Shown in pieces: positions 55,705 to 61,094 of a stretch of 64,000 nucleotides of DNA. Position 1 is the stretch's first letter. Each line of letters opens with the position of its first letter. Origin of the DNA: Rhizobium sp. Root483D2 (GTDB taxonomy: Bacteria; Pseudomonadota; Alphaproteobacteria; Rhizobiales; Rhizobiaceae). Below the pieces are notes generated by a model that saw nothing but the letters and a program-made list of their open reading frames with translations, searched no databases and was not told where the DNA came from. Location of the stretch: positions 1-64,000 of the forward strand of contig NZ_LMFB01000008.1 in the NCBI RefSeq assembly GCF_001426685.1, read 5' to 3'. A program made the translations under genes and the position numbers.

Positions 55705-56385
55705 ATGTCAAGAAGCTTTGCCGATAAAAATTCGAAATCCGTATCGTCTCCGAAACCGGCCGATGTAAGGCTGGAAAAAGGTGACTGTGTGCAGGCGCGT
55801 CCGGCGCCGCGGGACCGTATCGTTTCAACGGCTTGTGAGCTGTTCCGGCAACACGGCATCCGCGGTATTGGCGTCGATGCGATCGCCGAGGCGGCCGAGA
55901 CCAACAAGATGACGCTGTACCGTCATTTCGGCTCGAAGGACGACCTGATTTGCGAGACACTCAGGTTCACATCCGACAAAGCGGCGGCCTTCTGGGACCA
56001 GCTCGAAGCCGACCATCCCAAGGATCCGATGGCGCAGCTGCAGAGCTGGGTGAAAGCCCGGGCACAATGTCTGGCCGATAACAAATATGGTTGCGACCTG
56101 GCCAATGCCGCCGTCGAACTGAAAGAGCAGGGGCATCCGGCCCATGTGGTGATCGAGAACTTCAAGCTTGCGCAACGCCGCCGTCTCGAACAGCTCTGTC
56201 GCGATGCCGGCGTCAGCGAACCGGAGCTGCTATCCGACACGCTGTCGATGCTGATGGAGGGCGCGCAGGTGAGCAAGCTTGCCACCGGCAGCGAAGGCCC
56301 GTCGATGCGGTTCATGCGGGCTTGCGAAGCGGCCATCGCCTCGTTCCGCCAGCCGGCAAAGGTAGCTGCCGAAACAGTCGCCTGA
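55705..56385 (+). CDS. TetR/AcrR-family transcriptional regulator
   Basis: This 226-residue protein has an N-terminal extension of ~30 residues, then the TetR HTH (IVSTACELFRQHGIRGIGVD, IAEAAETNKMTLYRHFGSKD) and a helical ligand domain with WVKARAQCLADNKYGCDLAN. It may control itself through dyads at 55658 and 55691. The next operon starts 172 bp downstream, and whether this protein regulates it is unknown. Confidence 0.9.
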   Translation: MSRSFADKNSKSVSSPKPADVRLEKGDCVQARPAPRDRIVSTACELFRQHGIRGIGVDAIAEAAETNKMTLYRHFGSKDDLICETLRFTSDKAAAFWDQLEADHPKDPMAQLQSWVKARAQCLADNKYGCDLANAAVELKEQGHPAHVVIENFKLAQRRRLEQLCRDAGVSEPELLSDTLSMLMEGAQVSKLATGSEGPSMRFMRACEAAIASFRQPAKVAAETVA

Positions 56386-56557: not shown

Positions 56558-57379
56558 ATGTCCCCCATACAGGACTTCACCGTCACTCCGGACCCTGCAG
56601 ATTGGTGGACAGCCCATCGTGGCTCCTCGCCGATCGTCGGCACGGCCATCCACAACGGCCATCATATCCGCAACGCGCTTGGAGACCATCTTGGTCTCAG
56701 CGACGCGGAGCGGCTGCGTGAGGAAGACCCGTTCACCGAATTTTTCATCCGCGACCTGCCAAACCGCATCGTCTTTCATCGCTCCCGTTTCGAAATCGAT
56801 CTCAACCGGGCGCGTGACGGCGCAATCTATCTGACTCCGGAACAGGCTTGGGGTTTGAAGGTCTGGTCAAGGCCGCTGCCGGAGGACGCGATTGCGGCCT
56901 CGCTTGGCGTACATGATGCCTATTATGCGATGCTGGAGAATTATTTTCGCGGCGTCGAACAGCAGTTCGGCTCCTTCGTTGTACTCGACATGCACAGCTA
57001 CAATCACCGCCGCGACGGGGCGGACGGCCCTGAAATGCCGTTCGAAAAGGCGCCACAGATCAACATTGGCACATCTTCAATGGACCGCGAGCGCTGGGCG
57101 GACGTGCTCGATCCCTTCATCGAACAGCTGCGCCGCTTCCGGTTTCGTGGCGAGCCGATGGATGTGCGTGAAAACATCGCCTTTCAGGGCAAGGGCGAGC
57201 AGACCCGTTTCGTGCATGAGCGGTTTCCCGAAACCGGATGTGCCATCGCCATCGAGTTCAAGAAATTCTTCATGGACGAATGGACCGGGGAACCGGACCT
57301 TGAGGCGCTGGCCGCGATGCGCGAAATGATCCGCCAGTCGCTTCCTGTCCTTTTGGAAAGCCTGCGAGCGCGGCCATGA
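56558..57379 (+). CDS. N-formylglutamate amidohydrolase-like enzyme
   Basis: This 273-residue protein belongs to the N-formylglutamate amidohydrolase family, a zinc carboxypeptidase-like fold. It has TAIHNGHHIR (first metal ligand region), LREEDPFTEFFIRDLPNRIV, SRFEIDLNRARDGAIYLTPE and VVLDMHSYNHRRDG (metal histidine). The hut pathway genes are absent, so histidine catabolism is unlikely. Its stop overlaps the start of the QEGLA gene (ATGA), and the operon continues with an ATP-grasp ligase, so a role in trimming an amide-linked product is a fair inference. Confidence 0.82.
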   Translation: MSPIQDFTVTPDPADWWTAHRGSSPIVGTAIHNGHHIRNALGDHLGLSDAERLREEDPFTEFFIRDLPNRIVFHRSRFEIDLNRARDGAIYLTPEQAWGLKVWSRPLPEDAIAASLGVHDAYYAMLENYFRGVEQQFGSFVVLDMHSYNHRRDGADGPEMPFEKAPQINIGTSSMDRERWADVLDPFIEQLRRFRFRGEPMDVRENIAFQGKGEQTRFVHERFPETGCAIAIEFKKFFMDEWTGEPDLEALAAMREMIRQSLPVLLESLRARP

Positions 57380-59274
57380 CCAGCCCGCACCGCAAACAGC
57401 CGCAGGCGGCAAGCCGTCATCCGCAATGGCTGGAAGACATCCTCGATTGCATCCGCACGGACAAATCGGTCCGCAAGGATTTTGACAATGGCGGCCGCTT
57501 GCATATCGACCGGCCTCTGCCTTTTCTCTCCGTTCATATTGCCAAGGGCAGGGAAGATCTGGCGGCGCGCGATATCGCTGCAGCCAATGCGTCCTATCTG
57601 ATCGTCGAGGATATCAGCGAGGCGCTGCCGATCATCCTGGCTGTCGGCGGTGTGCTGCGCGACCGTTTCGGGGCGTTTCTGCTTCTGGATATCGATGAGT
57701 TCGATCATGACACGCTGATCACCGACGACGCTCCCTATCTGCCGCCCTTTGAGATCGGCATCGCCGCGACCGGCGACCCGGCAGCGCAGAAGGCTGGTTC
57801 GGCTTTGGCTGAGGGTGCCGATGTCGGCGAAGTCAAGTTCCGCACTCCGCATGTCAACCGGTTCGACCTGGAGGCCGACGCTCAAGCGGCAGCGCTCGCA
57901 GCGCAAACCTGCTTCCCGCTGGTTGCCGTCCGCTTTGCACCGATCTACCAGGCGCCGGAATCCGGCAATATCTACCCCGATCTGCGTGAACGCCTCGTTG
58001 CCAATATCTTTGATGCCGGACTAAAGGCTTTCGCAGCCTTTGTCGGCGTGACCCAGAGCCTGAAGCTGACCACACACCGGGCGCTCGGCCGCAAGGCTTT
58101 CGTCGATGCCGTCAGCCGCGCCGACCGCAGCATGGATGAAGTGGCCTCGAGCTTCGATTTCTTGCTGGCGGTCACGCCGATCAACACGGACGCCGCCTGG
58201 AAGGCGTTCAAGGCGGCAAAGTTCAAGCAGGAACCGCAGTTTCTCTACCGGCCGCTGTCGGTGCAGGTCGAGGCAGAAAAACGCAAGCTCTTCTCCGTCG
58301 CATTCGATCGCTTCGAGGATCCGGTTCTCTACCATCTCTACCGTGAGAAACAGCAGGAACTGGACCTCCAGCTGTCCTTGATCTCCGCCCGCGAAACCAG
58401 CCGCTTCGTCGAATATGGCCGCGCGCTCTATGGTCCGGTCGAGCTTCCGCTCCACCGGGCCGCCACCGATATCCTCGTAAAGACGGCTTCGTTTGCCGAC
58501 GATGGCGATGATGTCGAGGACGATCCGCAGACTGCCGATTGCGAAGAGGTCGCTGGGGCCGCGCGCGCCATGATCGGCGATTATCACCGGCAATATCCGG
58601 ATTTTGCAGCGGAAATCGAGCTACGCGACGACCTGCCGTCCGGCCTTATGGTGTCAGGCGAACGCCTGCTCATCTCCCGCCAGACCCTGATGCCGAAGGC
58701 ACGGGTGCATGCGCTGCTGAGCCACGAGATCGGCGTGCATCTCCTCACCTATTTCAACGGCTCGGCACAGGGGCTGCGGCTCTTCCGCTCCGGTCTGGCC
58801 GGTTATGAGGGCATGCAGGAAGGTCTTGCAGTCTTTTCCGAATATATGGCCGGCGGCATGACGGTCGGGCGATTGCGCCTGATTGCCGCCAGGGTCGTTG
58901 CCTGTGCGGCGATGCTGGAGGGGCGGCCGTTTACCGGCACTTACGCCATGCTCGTCGATGAACACCGGTTTGGACCGGTTGCTGCCTTTCATCTCGCCAT
59001 GCGAATCTATCGCGGCGGCGGCCTGGCCAAGGATGCGATCTATCTGCGTGGCCTGTTGGAACTGCTTGGCCATCTGAAAACGGGCGGCGCCCTCGACCCG
59101 TTCTGGATGGGCAAGATTTCCGCGTCGCATTTCCGGGTGATGCAGGAATTGAGCCTGCGCGGCCTGCTCAAGGCGCCCGTCATCCGCCCTGCCTTTCTCA
59201 CCCATCCGCAAGCACAAGCCCGCCTGGACAAGGCGCGGGCAGGACTGAACCCCCTGGATATGATCATCAGTTAG
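57376..59274 (+). CDS. DUF1704 family (QEGLA motif) metallopeptidase-like protein
   Basis: This 632-residue member of the flavohemoglobin expression-modulating QEGLA family (DUF1704) has a zinc-binding HEIGVH (450-455, HExxxH) and EGMQEGLAVFSEY with Q-E-G-L-A at 481-485 giving the third metal ligand region. The vertebrate relative MATCAP1 is a DUF1704 peptidase that removes the C-terminal tyrosine of alpha-tubulin. The bacterial substrate is unknown. It is translationally coupled to the amidohydrolase before it and is 8 bp from the ATP-grasp gene. Confidence 0.85.
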   Translation: MTSPHRKQPQAASRHPQWLEDILDCIRTDKSVRKDFDNGGRLHIDRPLPFLSVHIAKGREDLAARDIAAANASYLIVEDISEALPIILAVGGVLRDRFGAFLLLDIDEFDHDTLITDDAPYLPPFEIGIAATGDPAAQKAGSALAEGADVGEVKFRTPHVNRFDLEADAQAAALAAQTCFPLVAVRFAPIYQAPESGNIYPDLRERLVANIFDAGLKAFAAFVGVTQSLKLTTHRALGRKAFVDAVSRADRSMDEVASSFDFLLAVTPINTDAAWKAFKAAKFKQEPQFLYRPLSVQVEAEKRKLFSVAFDRFEDPVLYHLYREKQQELDLQLSLISARETSRFVEYGRALYGPVELPLHRAATDILVKTASFADDGDDVEDDPQTADCEEVAGAARAMIGDYHRQYPDFAAEIELRDDLPSGLMVSGERLLISRQTLMPKARVHALLSHEIGVHLLTYFNGSAQGLRLFRSGLAGYEGMQEGLAVFSEYMAGGMTVGRLRLIAARVVACAAMLEGRPFTGTYAMLVDEHRFGPVAAFHLAMRIYRGGGLAKDAIYLRGLLELLGHLKTGGALDPFWMGKISASHFRVMQELSLRGLLKAPVIRPAFLTHPQAQARLDKARAGLNPLDMIIS

Positions 59275-59282
59275 GAGCCACC

Positions 59283-60329
59283 ATGCGCGTCGCATTTTTC
59301 GTCAATTCGATCGAAAGCGAGGAACCTCATTTTACCACGACTGGGTTGGCGATGGCAGCGCTCGCGCGTGGCCACGACGTCTGTTACATCGCGCCGGGCG
59401 ATTTCGTCCTGCGTGCCGATGACAGCCTGATGGTACGGGCAACCACCGTTGCCGCAGGAAAATACAAGAATGCGCAGGCATTCCACGAGGGATTCCAGGG
59501 CAAGAATGCCAAGGTCCAGACGATCGACGTTCGCGAGGTCGATGTCATCTTCCTGCGCAACGACCCGTCGCTGGATTCCGACGACCGGCCATGGGCCGCG
59601 CATATCGGCGCCATGTTCGGACGCCTTGCCAGCGAACGCGGCTCGATCGTCGTCAACGACCCGGCTGGCCTGGCACTTGCGCAGAATAAACTTTATTTCC
59701 AGGGCTTTCCCGAGGCCGTGCGTCCGGAGACTTTGATCTCCAAGAGTATCGAGGAAATCCGCGCCTTCATTGCCGACCATCGCAAGGGCGTGATCCTCAA
59801 GCCGCTGCAGGGCTCGGGTGGCAAGAACGTCTTCAAGATTGCCACCCCCGACGATGCCAATCTCAACCAGATTTTCGAGGCGGTGAGTGGCGAAGGGTAC
59901 CTGATCGCGCAGGGCTATCTGCCCGAAGCCAAGGCCGGTGATATCCGTTTCTTCATGATGAACGGCAAGCCGCTGCAGCGCGACGGCGCCTATGCCGCCT
60001 TCCGCCGTGTTCCGGCCAAGGGCGAAGTGCGCTCCAACATGCATGCGGCCGGTACGGCAGAAGCGGTTAAGATCACCGATGACATCCTGGCCGTTGCCGA
60101 GATGGTGCGCCCCAAGCTGATCGAAGACGGCATGTTCCTGGTCGGCCTCGACATTGTCGGCGACAAGATCCTCGAGATCAACGTCTTCACGCCGGGCGGA
60201 ATTCCAGACATCGCCGCCATGCACAAGGTGGACTTTTCCGAGGATATTATCGAGGCCCTGGAGAAGAAGGCCGCCATCCGCAAAGCCTATGGCGGCACCA
60301 TGTCGAACCGGGCGCTCGCAACGCTATAG
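59283..60329 (+). CDS. ATP-grasp ligase, glutathione-synthase-like
   Basis: This 348-residue protein is related to prokaryotic glutathione synthase: IESEEPHFTTTGLAMAALAR, LRNDPSLDSDDRPWAAHIGA (acid substrate loop), GVILKPLQGSGGKNVFKI (ATP-grasp P-loop), KAGDIRFFMMNGKPLQRDGA and LVGLDIVGDKILEINVFTPG (metal ligands). It is longer than usual GshB (~315) and sits in an operon with peptidase-like proteins rather than gshA. It may ligate a different amino acid or peptide. Confidence 0.85.
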   Translation: MRVAFFVNSIESEEPHFTTTGLAMAALARGHDVCYIAPGDFVLRADDSLMVRATTVAAGKYKNAQAFHEGFQGKNAKVQTIDVREVDVIFLRNDPSLDSDDRPWAAHIGAMFGRLASERGSIVVNDPAGLALAQNKLYFQGFPEAVRPETLISKSIEEIRAFIADHRKGVILKPLQGSGGKNVFKIATPDDANLNQIFEAVSGEGYLIAQGYLPEAKAGDIRFFMMNGKPLQRDGAYAAFRRVPAKGEVRSNMHAAGTAEAVKITDDILAVAEMVRPKLIEDGMFLVGLDIVGDKILEINVFTPGGIPDIAAMHKVDFSEDIIEALEKKAAIRKAYGGTMSNRALATL

Positions 60330-60413
60330 CAGTTGGTTCCGTTCGCAGATGCTCCAGGCTGTTTTTGCTGATCATCTGTGCTATCGCGGGCGGCCTCAAC
60401 GATTGGAAGCGCC

Positions 60414-61094
60414 GTGATACCCTGGACCCTCATTGACACAGCGATCATGCCCGATGGCGGCGGCGAGCTGCGGCTGAAGCAGCGCGGAACCGAATTTTCG
60501 ATTATGCTCGGCACGATCGAACTTATGAACAGCCGGTTGAGCGGCTCTGAGGAGGCGTTGGCTCGTCTTTCCCATGAGCGTATCCGCACCCATTCAAAAC
60601 CGCATATGCTGATCGGCGGGCTCGGCATGGGCTTTACGCTGCGCGCTGCCCTCGTCGAACTGCCGCTGGATGCCCGGATCACGGTGGGCGAACTGGTGCC
60701 TGCCGTCGTTGCCTGGGCGCGCGGGCCGATGGCGGCGGTGTTTGCCGGCTGTGTGGATGATGCAAGGGTAACGATCCGCGAAGGCGATGTCGGCCGCCTC
60801 ATTCAGTCGGCAACCGGAGACTATGACGCGATCCTTCTCGACGTTGATAACGGGCCGGAGGGACTGACCCGCAGGGCAAACGACGATCTCTACAGCGTCG
60901 CCGGGCTACGCGAGGCGCGCAAGGCGCTCAGGCCCAACGGTGTTTTGTCCGTCTGGTCGTCAGCGCCCGATGCCGCCTTCACGCGCAGGCTGAAGCAGGC
61001 CGGCTTCGTGGTCGAGGAATTGTCGGTGCGCGCCAGCACCAAGGGCCGTGGCGCGCGCCATGTCATCTGGATGGCCACGAAAAAGGTGGCCTGA
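60414..61094 (+). CDS. Spermidine-synthase-like methyltransferase-fold protein
   Basis: This 226-residue protein with a Rossmann core has PHMLIGGLGMGFTLRAALVE (motif I with the AdoMet/dcAdoMet loop), RITVGELVPAVVAWARGP (acidic ligand), GDYDAILLDVDNGPEGLTRR (catalytic Asp-containing loop) and LRPNGVLSVWSSAPDAAF. It is shorter than spermidine synthases (~280). It may be an aminopropyl- or methyl-transferase acting on the operon's product. The GTG at 60414 follows GGAAG by 4 nt. Confidence 0.75.
   Translation: MIPWTLIDTAIMPDGGGELRLKQRGTEFSIMLGTIELMNSRLSGSEEALARLSHERIRTHSKPHMLIGGLGMGFTLRAALVELPLDARITVGELVPAVVAWARGPMAAVFAGCVDDARVTIREGDVGRLIQSATGDYDAILLDVDNGPEGLTRRANDDLYSVAGLREARKALRPNGVLSVWSSAPDAAFTRRLKQAGFVVEELSVRASTKGRGARHVIWMATKKVA

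What the first reader, a model, noticed from the sequence alone, without database searches (positions are those of the whole stretch)
56558..61094. Operon pairing a DUF1704 peptidase with an ATP-grasp ligase: possible amino-acid tagging and removal system
Seen: four genes on one strand, the first two overlapping by ATGA and the third 8 bp on. They encode an N-formylglutamate-amidohydrolase-like enzyme, a DUF1704 protein with HEIGVH and QEGLA, a glutathione-synthase-like ATP-grasp, and a spermidine-synthase-like protein. Known: the animal DUF1704 protein MATCAP1 removes a C-terminal tyrosine from tubulin, and tubulin tyrosine ligase is itself an ATP-grasp enzyme. Inference: the bacterial set may add an amino acid or amine to a protein or peptide and remove it again, or make and trim a peptide-like small molecule. 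No gshA, hut or polyamine pathway genes lie nearby to explain the enzymes by ordinary metabolism.
Basis: partly seen in the sequence, partly recalled or inferred. Interest (0 to 1): 0.75.

Follow-up and report, generated by a model that had tools for sequence, protein, structure and literature searches.

The report
Three-enzyme peptide make-and-break cassette
Bacteria from many phyla carry the same small gene set, one enzyme that joins building blocks and two zinc enzymes that cut such bonds, at times beside genes for pressure-sensitive channels and magnesium transporters; what it makes is unknown, and it looks like an unstudied system related to an enzyme that trims animal tubulin.

Summary
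FGase (56558-57379), a DUF1704/MATCAP metallopeptidase (57376-59274) and a GshB-like ATP-grasp ligase (59283-60329) form a tight operon. The fourth, SpeE-like gene is an add-on of the host's genus and nearest relatives. The three-gene core is strongly conserved: of 114 long-form DUF1704 loci read, 112 have the ligase and 107 an FGase within 3 kb or fused, across about a dozen phyla. In one clade FGase and MATCAP are a single protein. In the window's clade the MATCAP protein carries an N-terminal domain with an FGase/M14-like fold that lacks the zinc histidines, a dead FGase. The ligase is unlikely to be the cell's glutathione synthase: a canonical GshB lies elsewhere, and this subfamily occurs in 31 of 297 family genomes, all among the 32 with DUF1704. 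Outside rhizobia, 19 of 55 loci have an MscS channel or CorA/MgtE magnesium transporter nearby, well above background. Best reading: two hydrolases and one ligase make and take apart one small peptide-like compound tied to ion or osmotic balance. Substrate and function are untested.

The parts
55705..56385 (+). TetR-family regulator gene upstream of the operon (226 aa)
   Evidence: PF00440 55.7 bits; a close homologue sits just upstream of the cassette in own-genus loci L092-L095 and near relatives L132-L136, and a more distant one (171 bits) near the cassette in L104/L163. Its role as the operon's regulator is inferred from position.
56558..57379 (+). Stand-alone FGase-type zinc amidohydrolase (273 aa)
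57376..59274 (+). DUF1704/MATCAP-family metallopeptidase, two-domain long form (632 aa)
   Evidence: PF08014 308 bits; TIGR02421 366 bits; model pLDDT 92.4.
57376..58095 (+). N-terminal domain of the MATCAP protein: degenerate FGase/M14-like domain (about residues 1-240)
58162..59268 (+). MATCAP catalytic domain (residues 263-631); zinc motif HEIGVH at residues 450-455, third ligand E482 in QEGLA
59283..60329 (+). GshB-like ATP-grasp ligase, PRK12458 subfamily (348 aa)
   Evidence: NF009110 480 bits against a cut-off of 408; below the cut-offs of the glutathione synthase equivalogs; closest solved relative 1gsa.
60378..61094 (+). Accessory SpeE/methyltransferase-like gene (238 aa), next to the cassette only in the host's genus and nearest relatives
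   Evidence: PF01564 22.4 bits, cut-off 22.9; among loci L072-L211 homologues only in L092-L095, L132-L136 and, more distant and 4.3 kb from the MATCAP gene, in a Devosia MAG, L153.

Best explanation
The three core genes are one biochemical module acting on one small peptide-like compound in the cytoplasm. The ATP-grasp ligase joins an amino acid or amine to a free carboxylate of an acid that is not gamma-glutamylcysteine (inferred). The FGase-type zinc enzyme hydrolyses an N-acyl or other amide of an acidic amino acid, as HutG-, AstE- and M14-like enzymes do, and the MATCAP enzyme removes the residue at the carboxyl end, as its animal relatives do (both inferred from family). In the window's clade the dead FGase-like domain of the MATCAP protein probably holds the same compound, or docks the active FGase. 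The module thus makes and removes a peptide-type solute or effector, most likely under osmotic or ionic control. Shown here: the unit, its conservation, the fusion, the lost and kept active sites, co-occurrence, and enrichment of MscS and CorA nearby. Inferred: one shared substrate, reaction directions, cytoplasmic place, osmotic role. Rough odds: one module with one substrate 0.8; small molecule rather than protein 0.65; osmotic or ionic role 0.45.
For: Gene order FGase - MATCAP - ligase in loci of many phyla; of 114 long-form loci, ligase within 3 kb in 112, FGase near or fused in 107, both in 106. FGase and MATCAP fused in 6 loci. In L078, which lacks FGase and this ligase nearby, an AstE/AspA-family deacylase gene overlaps the start of the MATCAP gene, as if in FGase's place. 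The ligase subfamily occurs in 31 of 297 family genomes, all 31 among the 32 with PF08014; the exception has a contig that ends inside the ligase gene. Distances of the three proteins correlate, r 0.70-0.79 in 37 non-rhizobial unfused loci, 0 of 999 permutations as high. Separate canonical GshB. Extra ligase or MATCAP hits in 8 loci. MscS, confirmed by Pfam, in 13 of 55 non-rhizobial loci, about 0.9 expected; CorA in 8 of 55, about 0.2 expected. Pfam on 238 neighbour proteins: MscS 8, CorA 4, MgtE 2, TrkA_C 2. An MscS gene lies 8.4 kb beyond the operon in the host itself.
Against: No substrate is known and no biochemistry was done. Rhizobial loci outside the host's genus and nearest relatives mostly lack MscS in the stretch read: 8 of 59 have it, 7 of them in that genus group (one a duplicate), and CorA and MgtE 0 of 59. 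MscS and CorA genes are often kilobases away or on the other strand, so a shared stress island would be enough to explain them. Several of these loci come from the same broad clades and are not fully independent. One of my 14 HMM hits for MscS (L194) and two of 6 for MgtE (L078, L204) were not confirmed by Pfam and are dropped. Four loci (L082, L178, L191, L202) have the ligase but no FGase in the stretch read, and L078 has neither within 3 kb. Three family genomes hold a second copy of the ligase away from DUF1704.
Confidence: 0.4

Rival explanations
1. Protein tagging: the ligase adds an amino acid to the end or side chain of a protein, and MATCAP (and FGase) remove it, as RimK and tubulin modifiers do.
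For: Animal MATCAP/TMCP enzymes remove C-terminal residues and glutamates from tubulin (abstract and passages of PMC10499314). The ligase's second-best solved relatives are RimK proteins. A true RimK (449 bits, cut-off 331) is the divergent neighbour of a short-form DUF1704 in L130 and another lies about 5 kb away in L120, and a RimK-family ligase lies next to the fused cassette in L073.
Against: The cassette ligase is GshB-type with a GSH-S_N domain. FGase-type enzymes known to me act on small molecules. No protein partner recurs among the commonest families of 238 neighbour proteins.
Confidence: 0.2
2. Biosynthesis of a peptide-like natural product or metal chelator, with the two hydrolases as maturation steps rather than as a removal route.
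For: Sporadic presence (32 of 297 family genomes; 9 of 385 in the class) and extra ligase copies in some loci look like a biosynthetic cluster; CorA and MgtE nearby would suit a metal theme.
Against: No exporter, carrier protein or tailoring enzyme recurs next to the core among the commonest neighbour clusters and families shown; the core is very uniform across phyla for such a cluster.
Confidence: 0.2
3. Salvage: the hydrolases break down an imported or damaged peptide (for example a glutathione-like one) and the ligase is a repair or side activity.
For: Two of three enzymes are hydrolases; L086-L088 keep a MATCAP gene of the fused clade without FGase domain or ligase in the stretch read; L078 has MATCAP with an AstE/AspA deacylase and no cassette ligase nearby.
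Against: The ligase is the most constant partner: 112 of 114 loci, and its presence tracks DUF1704 in 31 of 32 genomes.
Confidence: 0.12
4. An ordinary backup glutathione synthase that happens to sit with two peptidases.
For: GshB is the closest solved relative (141 bits to 1gsa).
Against: Scores lie below both glutathione synthase equivalog cut-offs, 209.6 of 299.05 and 226.5 of 272, though fused-clade ligases come closer (L076 277 bits, over the 272 of PRK05246); canonical GshB present; the TSPTGIRE loop of the host's own GshB is replaced by an F[ST]PGG-type loop, and by recall that loop contacts the glutamyl part in E. coli GshB.
Confidence: 0.05

Closest known systems
Human MATCAP1/TMCP1 (KIAA0895L) and MATCAP2/TMCP2
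   Different: Bacterial protein has an added dead FGase-like domain, an FGase partner and a ligase; no tubulin; 18-19% identity.
N-formylglutamate amidohydrolases (HutG; PDB 2q7s, 2odf)
   Different: Far below the HutG equivalog cut-off, 24.6 of 278.75 bits; genetic setting is the cassette, not histidine use.
Bacterial glutathione synthase GshB (1gsa) and RimK ligases
   Same: Same GSH-S architecture; the Glu and Asn that bind Mg2+ in GshB by recall are kept as E298 and N300.
   Different: Separate curated subfamily (PRK12458), different loop after ExN, co-occurs with DUF1704.
TIGR02421 / COG3930 short-form DUF1704 (flavohemoglobin expression-modulating QEGLA protein)
   Same: Same catalytic domain; a QEGLA protein gene is 27.5-fold up at 1% against 3% NaCl in Photobacterium damselae (PMC10308900, passage and section 19 part 1; the direction read from the sign of the fold change and the table layout).
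   Different: Ten short forms make a separate clade; no FGase, no cassette ligase and no MscS hit in the 26 loci of the short group read. Which clade the Photobacterium gene belongs to was not tested.
ATP-grasp ligase plus peptidase gene clusters (Iyer et al. 2009, Mol BioSyst; recalled, paper not held) and the NAGGN osmolyte trio (recalled; its synthetase is TIGR03103, named)
   Same: A non-ribosomal peptide ligase kept with a peptidase; in NAGGN the product is an osmolyte.
   Different: Different ligase and peptidase families. I cannot say whether the 2009 survey already listed this neighbourhood.

Membership tests
MATCAP / DUF1704 (PF08014) | Profile score over the curated cut-off | tested here: met
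   308.3 bits, cut-off 27
MATCAP / DUF1704 (PF08014) | HExxxH zinc motif with a downstream EGLA glutamate | tested here: met
   Invariant in 27 of 27 and 43 of 43; by pattern in 116 of 117 long forms
MATCAP / DUF1704 (PF08014) | MATCAP fold | tested here: met
MATCAP / DUF1704 (PF08014) | Carboxypeptidase or deglutamylase activity | not testable with these tools
   Needs enzyme assay
N-formylglutamate amidohydrolase superfamily (PF05013) | Profile score and fold | tested here: met
HutG N-formylglutamate deformylase (TIGR02017) | Equivalog score | tested here: not met
   24.6 bits, cut-off 278.75
Glutathione synthase GshB (TIGR01380, PRK05246) | Equivalog score | tested here: not met
   209.6 of 299.05 and 226.5 of 272 bits for the window protein
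Glutathione synthase GshB | Being the cell's glutathione synthase | tested here: inconclusive
   A better GSH-S_ATP match (238 against 183 bits) lies on contig C12; activity of neither was tested
PRK12458 / NF009110 subfamily | Subfamily score | tested here: met
   480.2 bits, cut-off 408
Tubulin tyrosine ligase type ATP-grasp | Sequence relation to TTL | tested here: inconclusive
   9 solved sequences listed at E <= 0.001, GshB and RimK types first, no TTL among them; absence from a list is not exclusion
Spermidine synthase / SpeE (gene 4) | Equivalog score | tested here: not met
   35.2 of 472, 28.7 of 260, 25.4 of 304 and 21.7 of 249.55 bits
Peptide osmolyte system such as NAGGN | Accumulated peptide solute under high salt | not testable with these tools
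   Needs metabolite measurement

The most novel reading that the evidence does not exclude
The cassette makes and destroys a so far unknown peptide-type solute or ligand that works with MscS channels and CorA/MgtE transporters in bacterial volume and magnesium control; the eukaryotic tubulin-trimming MATCAP enzymes descend from, or share an ancestor with, peptidases whose original job was to take apart such a small compound.
Probability: 0.2. Interest if true: 0.85.

Novelty: new variant of a known kind. Interest (0 to 1): 0.6.

Why it matters
MATCAP was named recently as a tubulin detyrosinase (solved entries released 2022), and I found no tested job for its bacterial relatives; the bacterial name (flavohemoglobin expression-modulating) says little. 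A three-enzyme unit conserved over about a dozen phyla, with a Rosetta-stone fusion and a repeated setting near osmotic channels and magnesium transporters, turns an orphan family into a testable pathway with a defined ligase, defined hydrolases and a physiological condition to try. If true it may add a new kind of peptide solute or signal and a bacterial background for a tubulin-modifying enzyme.

Tried and rejected
Glutathione synthase by another name: rejected as the main reading, because equivalog cut-offs are not met and a canonical GshB exists.

Four-gene operon: rejected. Among loci L072-L211 homologues of the SpeE-like gene occur only in L092-L095 and L132-L136 (host's genus and nearest relatives) and, more distant, 4.3 kb from the MATCAP gene in a Devosia MAG, L153.

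TTL-like ligase: no support; not excluded.

FGase sequence against solved structures: no match at E <= 1 with a profile, and only chance-level matches with the single sequence. The single DUF1704 sequence also found none; its profile did. The fold comparison settled the FGase.

Other recurring partners: LysR genes (9 of 117 in A4) include a cluster in 8 loci of unnamed Pseudomonadota genomes, a very common family; a Pontibacter block of several genes is shared synteny of close relatives.

MscS and CorA as a mere effect of common genes: not favoured, since response regulators (6 of 238), which by general knowledge are far commoner in genomes, were seen less often than MscS (8 of 238) among the same neighbours. 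A shared stress island remains possible. On re-check Pfam did not confirm one MscS hit (L194) or two MgtE hits (L078, a CBS/glyoxalase protein; L204, a CNNM/CorC protein).

Papers: (DUF1704) gave 1 paper, on malaria parasites; two searches gave the Photobacterium paper and, in 29, a V. vulnificus paper; others (34 papers, 20 listed; 317, 20 listed; 45, 25 listed; 11 listed; 1,202, 12 listed; 0 papers) gave nothing in the listings that describes this cassette. I saw search listings with starts of abstracts for these, passages of PMC10499314, PMC13269789, PMC10308900 and PMC3091676, and section 19 part 1 of PMC10308900. The held library lacks most subscription papers.

Rows dropped before counts: for the neighbour scan 8 of 55 loci were left out as same-genus or near duplicates, and 238 of 247 neighbour proteins were sent (9 left out when I wrote the lists; one of those, a transposase, had been scanned). 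G-handle loci and named loci overlap in part (for example L092 and L134, L093 and L132 are the same contigs), so the 114 loci are not 114 independent events. The search for related loci kept the best 80 of 565 relatives, so the 114 favour close relatives of the window. The 24 genomes used for the MscS and CorA background were chosen by me and include most of the loci with MscS hits. The 107 FGase loci include L073, whose fused FGase domain is itself degenerate.
Full report
What is there. The window holds a + strand operon: a TetR gene (55705-56385), an FGase-family gene (56558-57379), a DUF1704 gene (57376-59274), a glutathione-synthetase-like ATP-grasp gene (59283-60329) and a SpeE-like gene (60378-61094). 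The FGase and DUF1704 genes overlap by ATGA and the ligase gene follows after 8 bp. Pfam now calls DUF1704 'MATCAP' after the human enzyme.

Conservation. PF08014 is rare: 9 of 385 genomes sampled in the class, 32 of 297 in the family, 47 of 398 in the phylum. Two sorts exist: short proteins of roughly 400-550 residues, and long ones of about 610-720. In 112 of 114 the ligase lies within 3 kb, in 107 an FGase lies within 3 kb or is fused, and in 106 both. The misses: L174 and L186 are at contig ends; L210 has its ligase 3.3 kb away; L082, L178, L191 and L202 have the ligase but no FGase in the stretch read; L078 has neither within 3 kb, but an AstE/AspA-family deacylase gene (PF24827, 127 bits) overlaps the start of its MATCAP gene, as if in FGase's place. 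The named loci span Pseudomonadota, Bacteroidota, Planctomycetota, Acidobacteriota, Gemmatimonadota, Campylobacterota, Calditrichota, Verrucomicrobiota, Kiritimatiellota, Myxococcota, Poribacteria and one Actinomycetota MAG; many are MAGs and may be misbinned. Of 43 MATCAP-ligase pairs on one strand within 300 bp in non-rhizobial loci, 38 have gaps of -4 to 49 bp. The ligase subfamily (NF009110) was found in 31 of 297 family genomes, every one also a PF08014 genome; the single PF08014 genome without it, G560, has a contig that ends inside the ligase gene. Three of the 31 (G455, G538, G600) hold a second copy away from DUF1704. A Fisher test on the presence table gives P about 3e-41, ignoring relatedness. 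Protein distances of the three partners correlate: r 0.86-0.89 over 42 non-rhizobial loci and 0.70-0.79 over 37 unfused ones, 0 of 999 permutations as high.

Setting. Outside rhizobia the flanks repeat a theme. An HMM seeded from four MscS genes hit 14 of 55 loci (784 kb); Pfam confirms 13, all but L194. The Pfam density in 24 of these genomes is 149 in 131.8 Mb, so about 0.9 were expected; Poisson P for 13 or more is about 1.5e-11, ignoring relatedness. CorA was hit in 8 of 55, about 0.2 expected from 37 in 131.8 Mb. MgtE was hit in 6 of 55, of which 4 hold up (L072, L080, L175, L195); in L175 it lies between MATCAP and ligase; L204 is a CNNM/CorC-type protein instead. Together 19 of 55 loci have at least one of MscS, CorA or MgtE. 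A Pfam scan of 238 neighbour proteins from 47 dereplicated loci found MscS 8, CorA 4, MgtE 2, TrkA_C 2. MscS and CorA are both there in L080, L082, L171 and L190. In the host, an MscS gene lies at C8 69518-71725, outside the window and 8.4 kb past the operon; of the loci of the host's genus group, L092, L094, L095 and L133-L136 also show one, L093 and L132 (one genome, shorter stretches) do not. Other rhizobial loci mostly do not: 8 of 59 in all, and CorA and MgtE 0 of 59. Short-group loci: MscS 0 of 26. A QEGLA-family gene in Photobacterium damselae is 27.5-fold up at 1% NaCl against 3%, and V. vulnificus has COG3930 and 'glutathione synthetase' with consecutive locus tags VV2_1203-1204; I did not place either in the tree.

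How it most likely works. One ligase and two zinc hydrolases on the same compound; the fusion and the retained dead domain argue that FGase and MATCAP meet the same substrate, and the AstE/AspA gene of L078 suggests that FGase's share is to remove an acyl-type group from an amino acid. Extra ligase or MATCAP hits in eight loci, five of them planctomycete, suggest that more than one residue can be added; in L176 two ligase hits are one gene read in two frames. A small peptide-like compound suits the FGase partner better than a protein does. The channel and transporter neighbours point to ionic or osmotic control. This is inference; no substrate is known.

Known or new. I found no description of this cassette in the searches listed under Tried and rejected. 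An earlier survey of ATP-grasp amidoligase neighbourhoods (Iyer et al. 2009, recalled, not held) may have listed it; the general kind, a peptide ligase kept with peptidases, is known. What is new here, as far as I could see, is the three-gene unit across phyla, the fusion and dead-domain history, the close co-occurrence and the channel/transporter setting.

Noticed in passing
L130:3046-3948 and L130:4265-5614; L120:3229-4146: A true RimK (S6 glutamate ligase, 449 bits) is the divergent neighbour of a short-form DUF1704 gene in L130; in L120 a RimK lies about 5 kb away. A glutamylation and deglutamylation pair is possible.
   Followed up: partly
L073:5748-6653: A RimK-family ligase (227 bits to rimK_fam) lies divergent next to the fused FGase-MATCAP cassette, which is followed by an MscS gene 21 bp on.
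   Followed up: partly
L078:11064-12110: An AstE/AspA-family deacylase gene overlaps the start of the MATCAP gene, in the place that FGase takes elsewhere; no cassette ligase nearby.
   Followed up: partly
L190, L194, L204, L186: Planctomycete loci with three ligase hits and, in L194, L204 and L186, two MATCAP genes; the order suggests duplication of the MATCAP-ligase pair.
   Followed up: no
L086, L087, L088: MATCAP genes of about 390 residues that branch with the fused clade but have no FGase domain and no ligase in the stretch read.
   Followed up: no
L153:1988-2656: A Devosia MAG has a homologue of the host's accessory SpeE-like gene (287 bits) 3.5 kb upstream of its FGase gene, so this gene may travel with the cassette.
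   Followed up: no
G538:C21:49988-51031, G600:C3:1026626-1027663, G455:C2:2322623-2323660: Second copies of the cassette-type ligase away from DUF1704 in three genomes of the family.
   Followed up: no
Photobacterium damselae A0J47_RS17025 (PMC10308900): A QEGLA-family gene rises 27.5-fold at 1% against 3% NaCl; clade not tested.
   Followed up: no
L117:8817 onwards: The DUF1704 gene of genome G082 is split over two reading frames and looks broken; left as it is.
   Followed up: no
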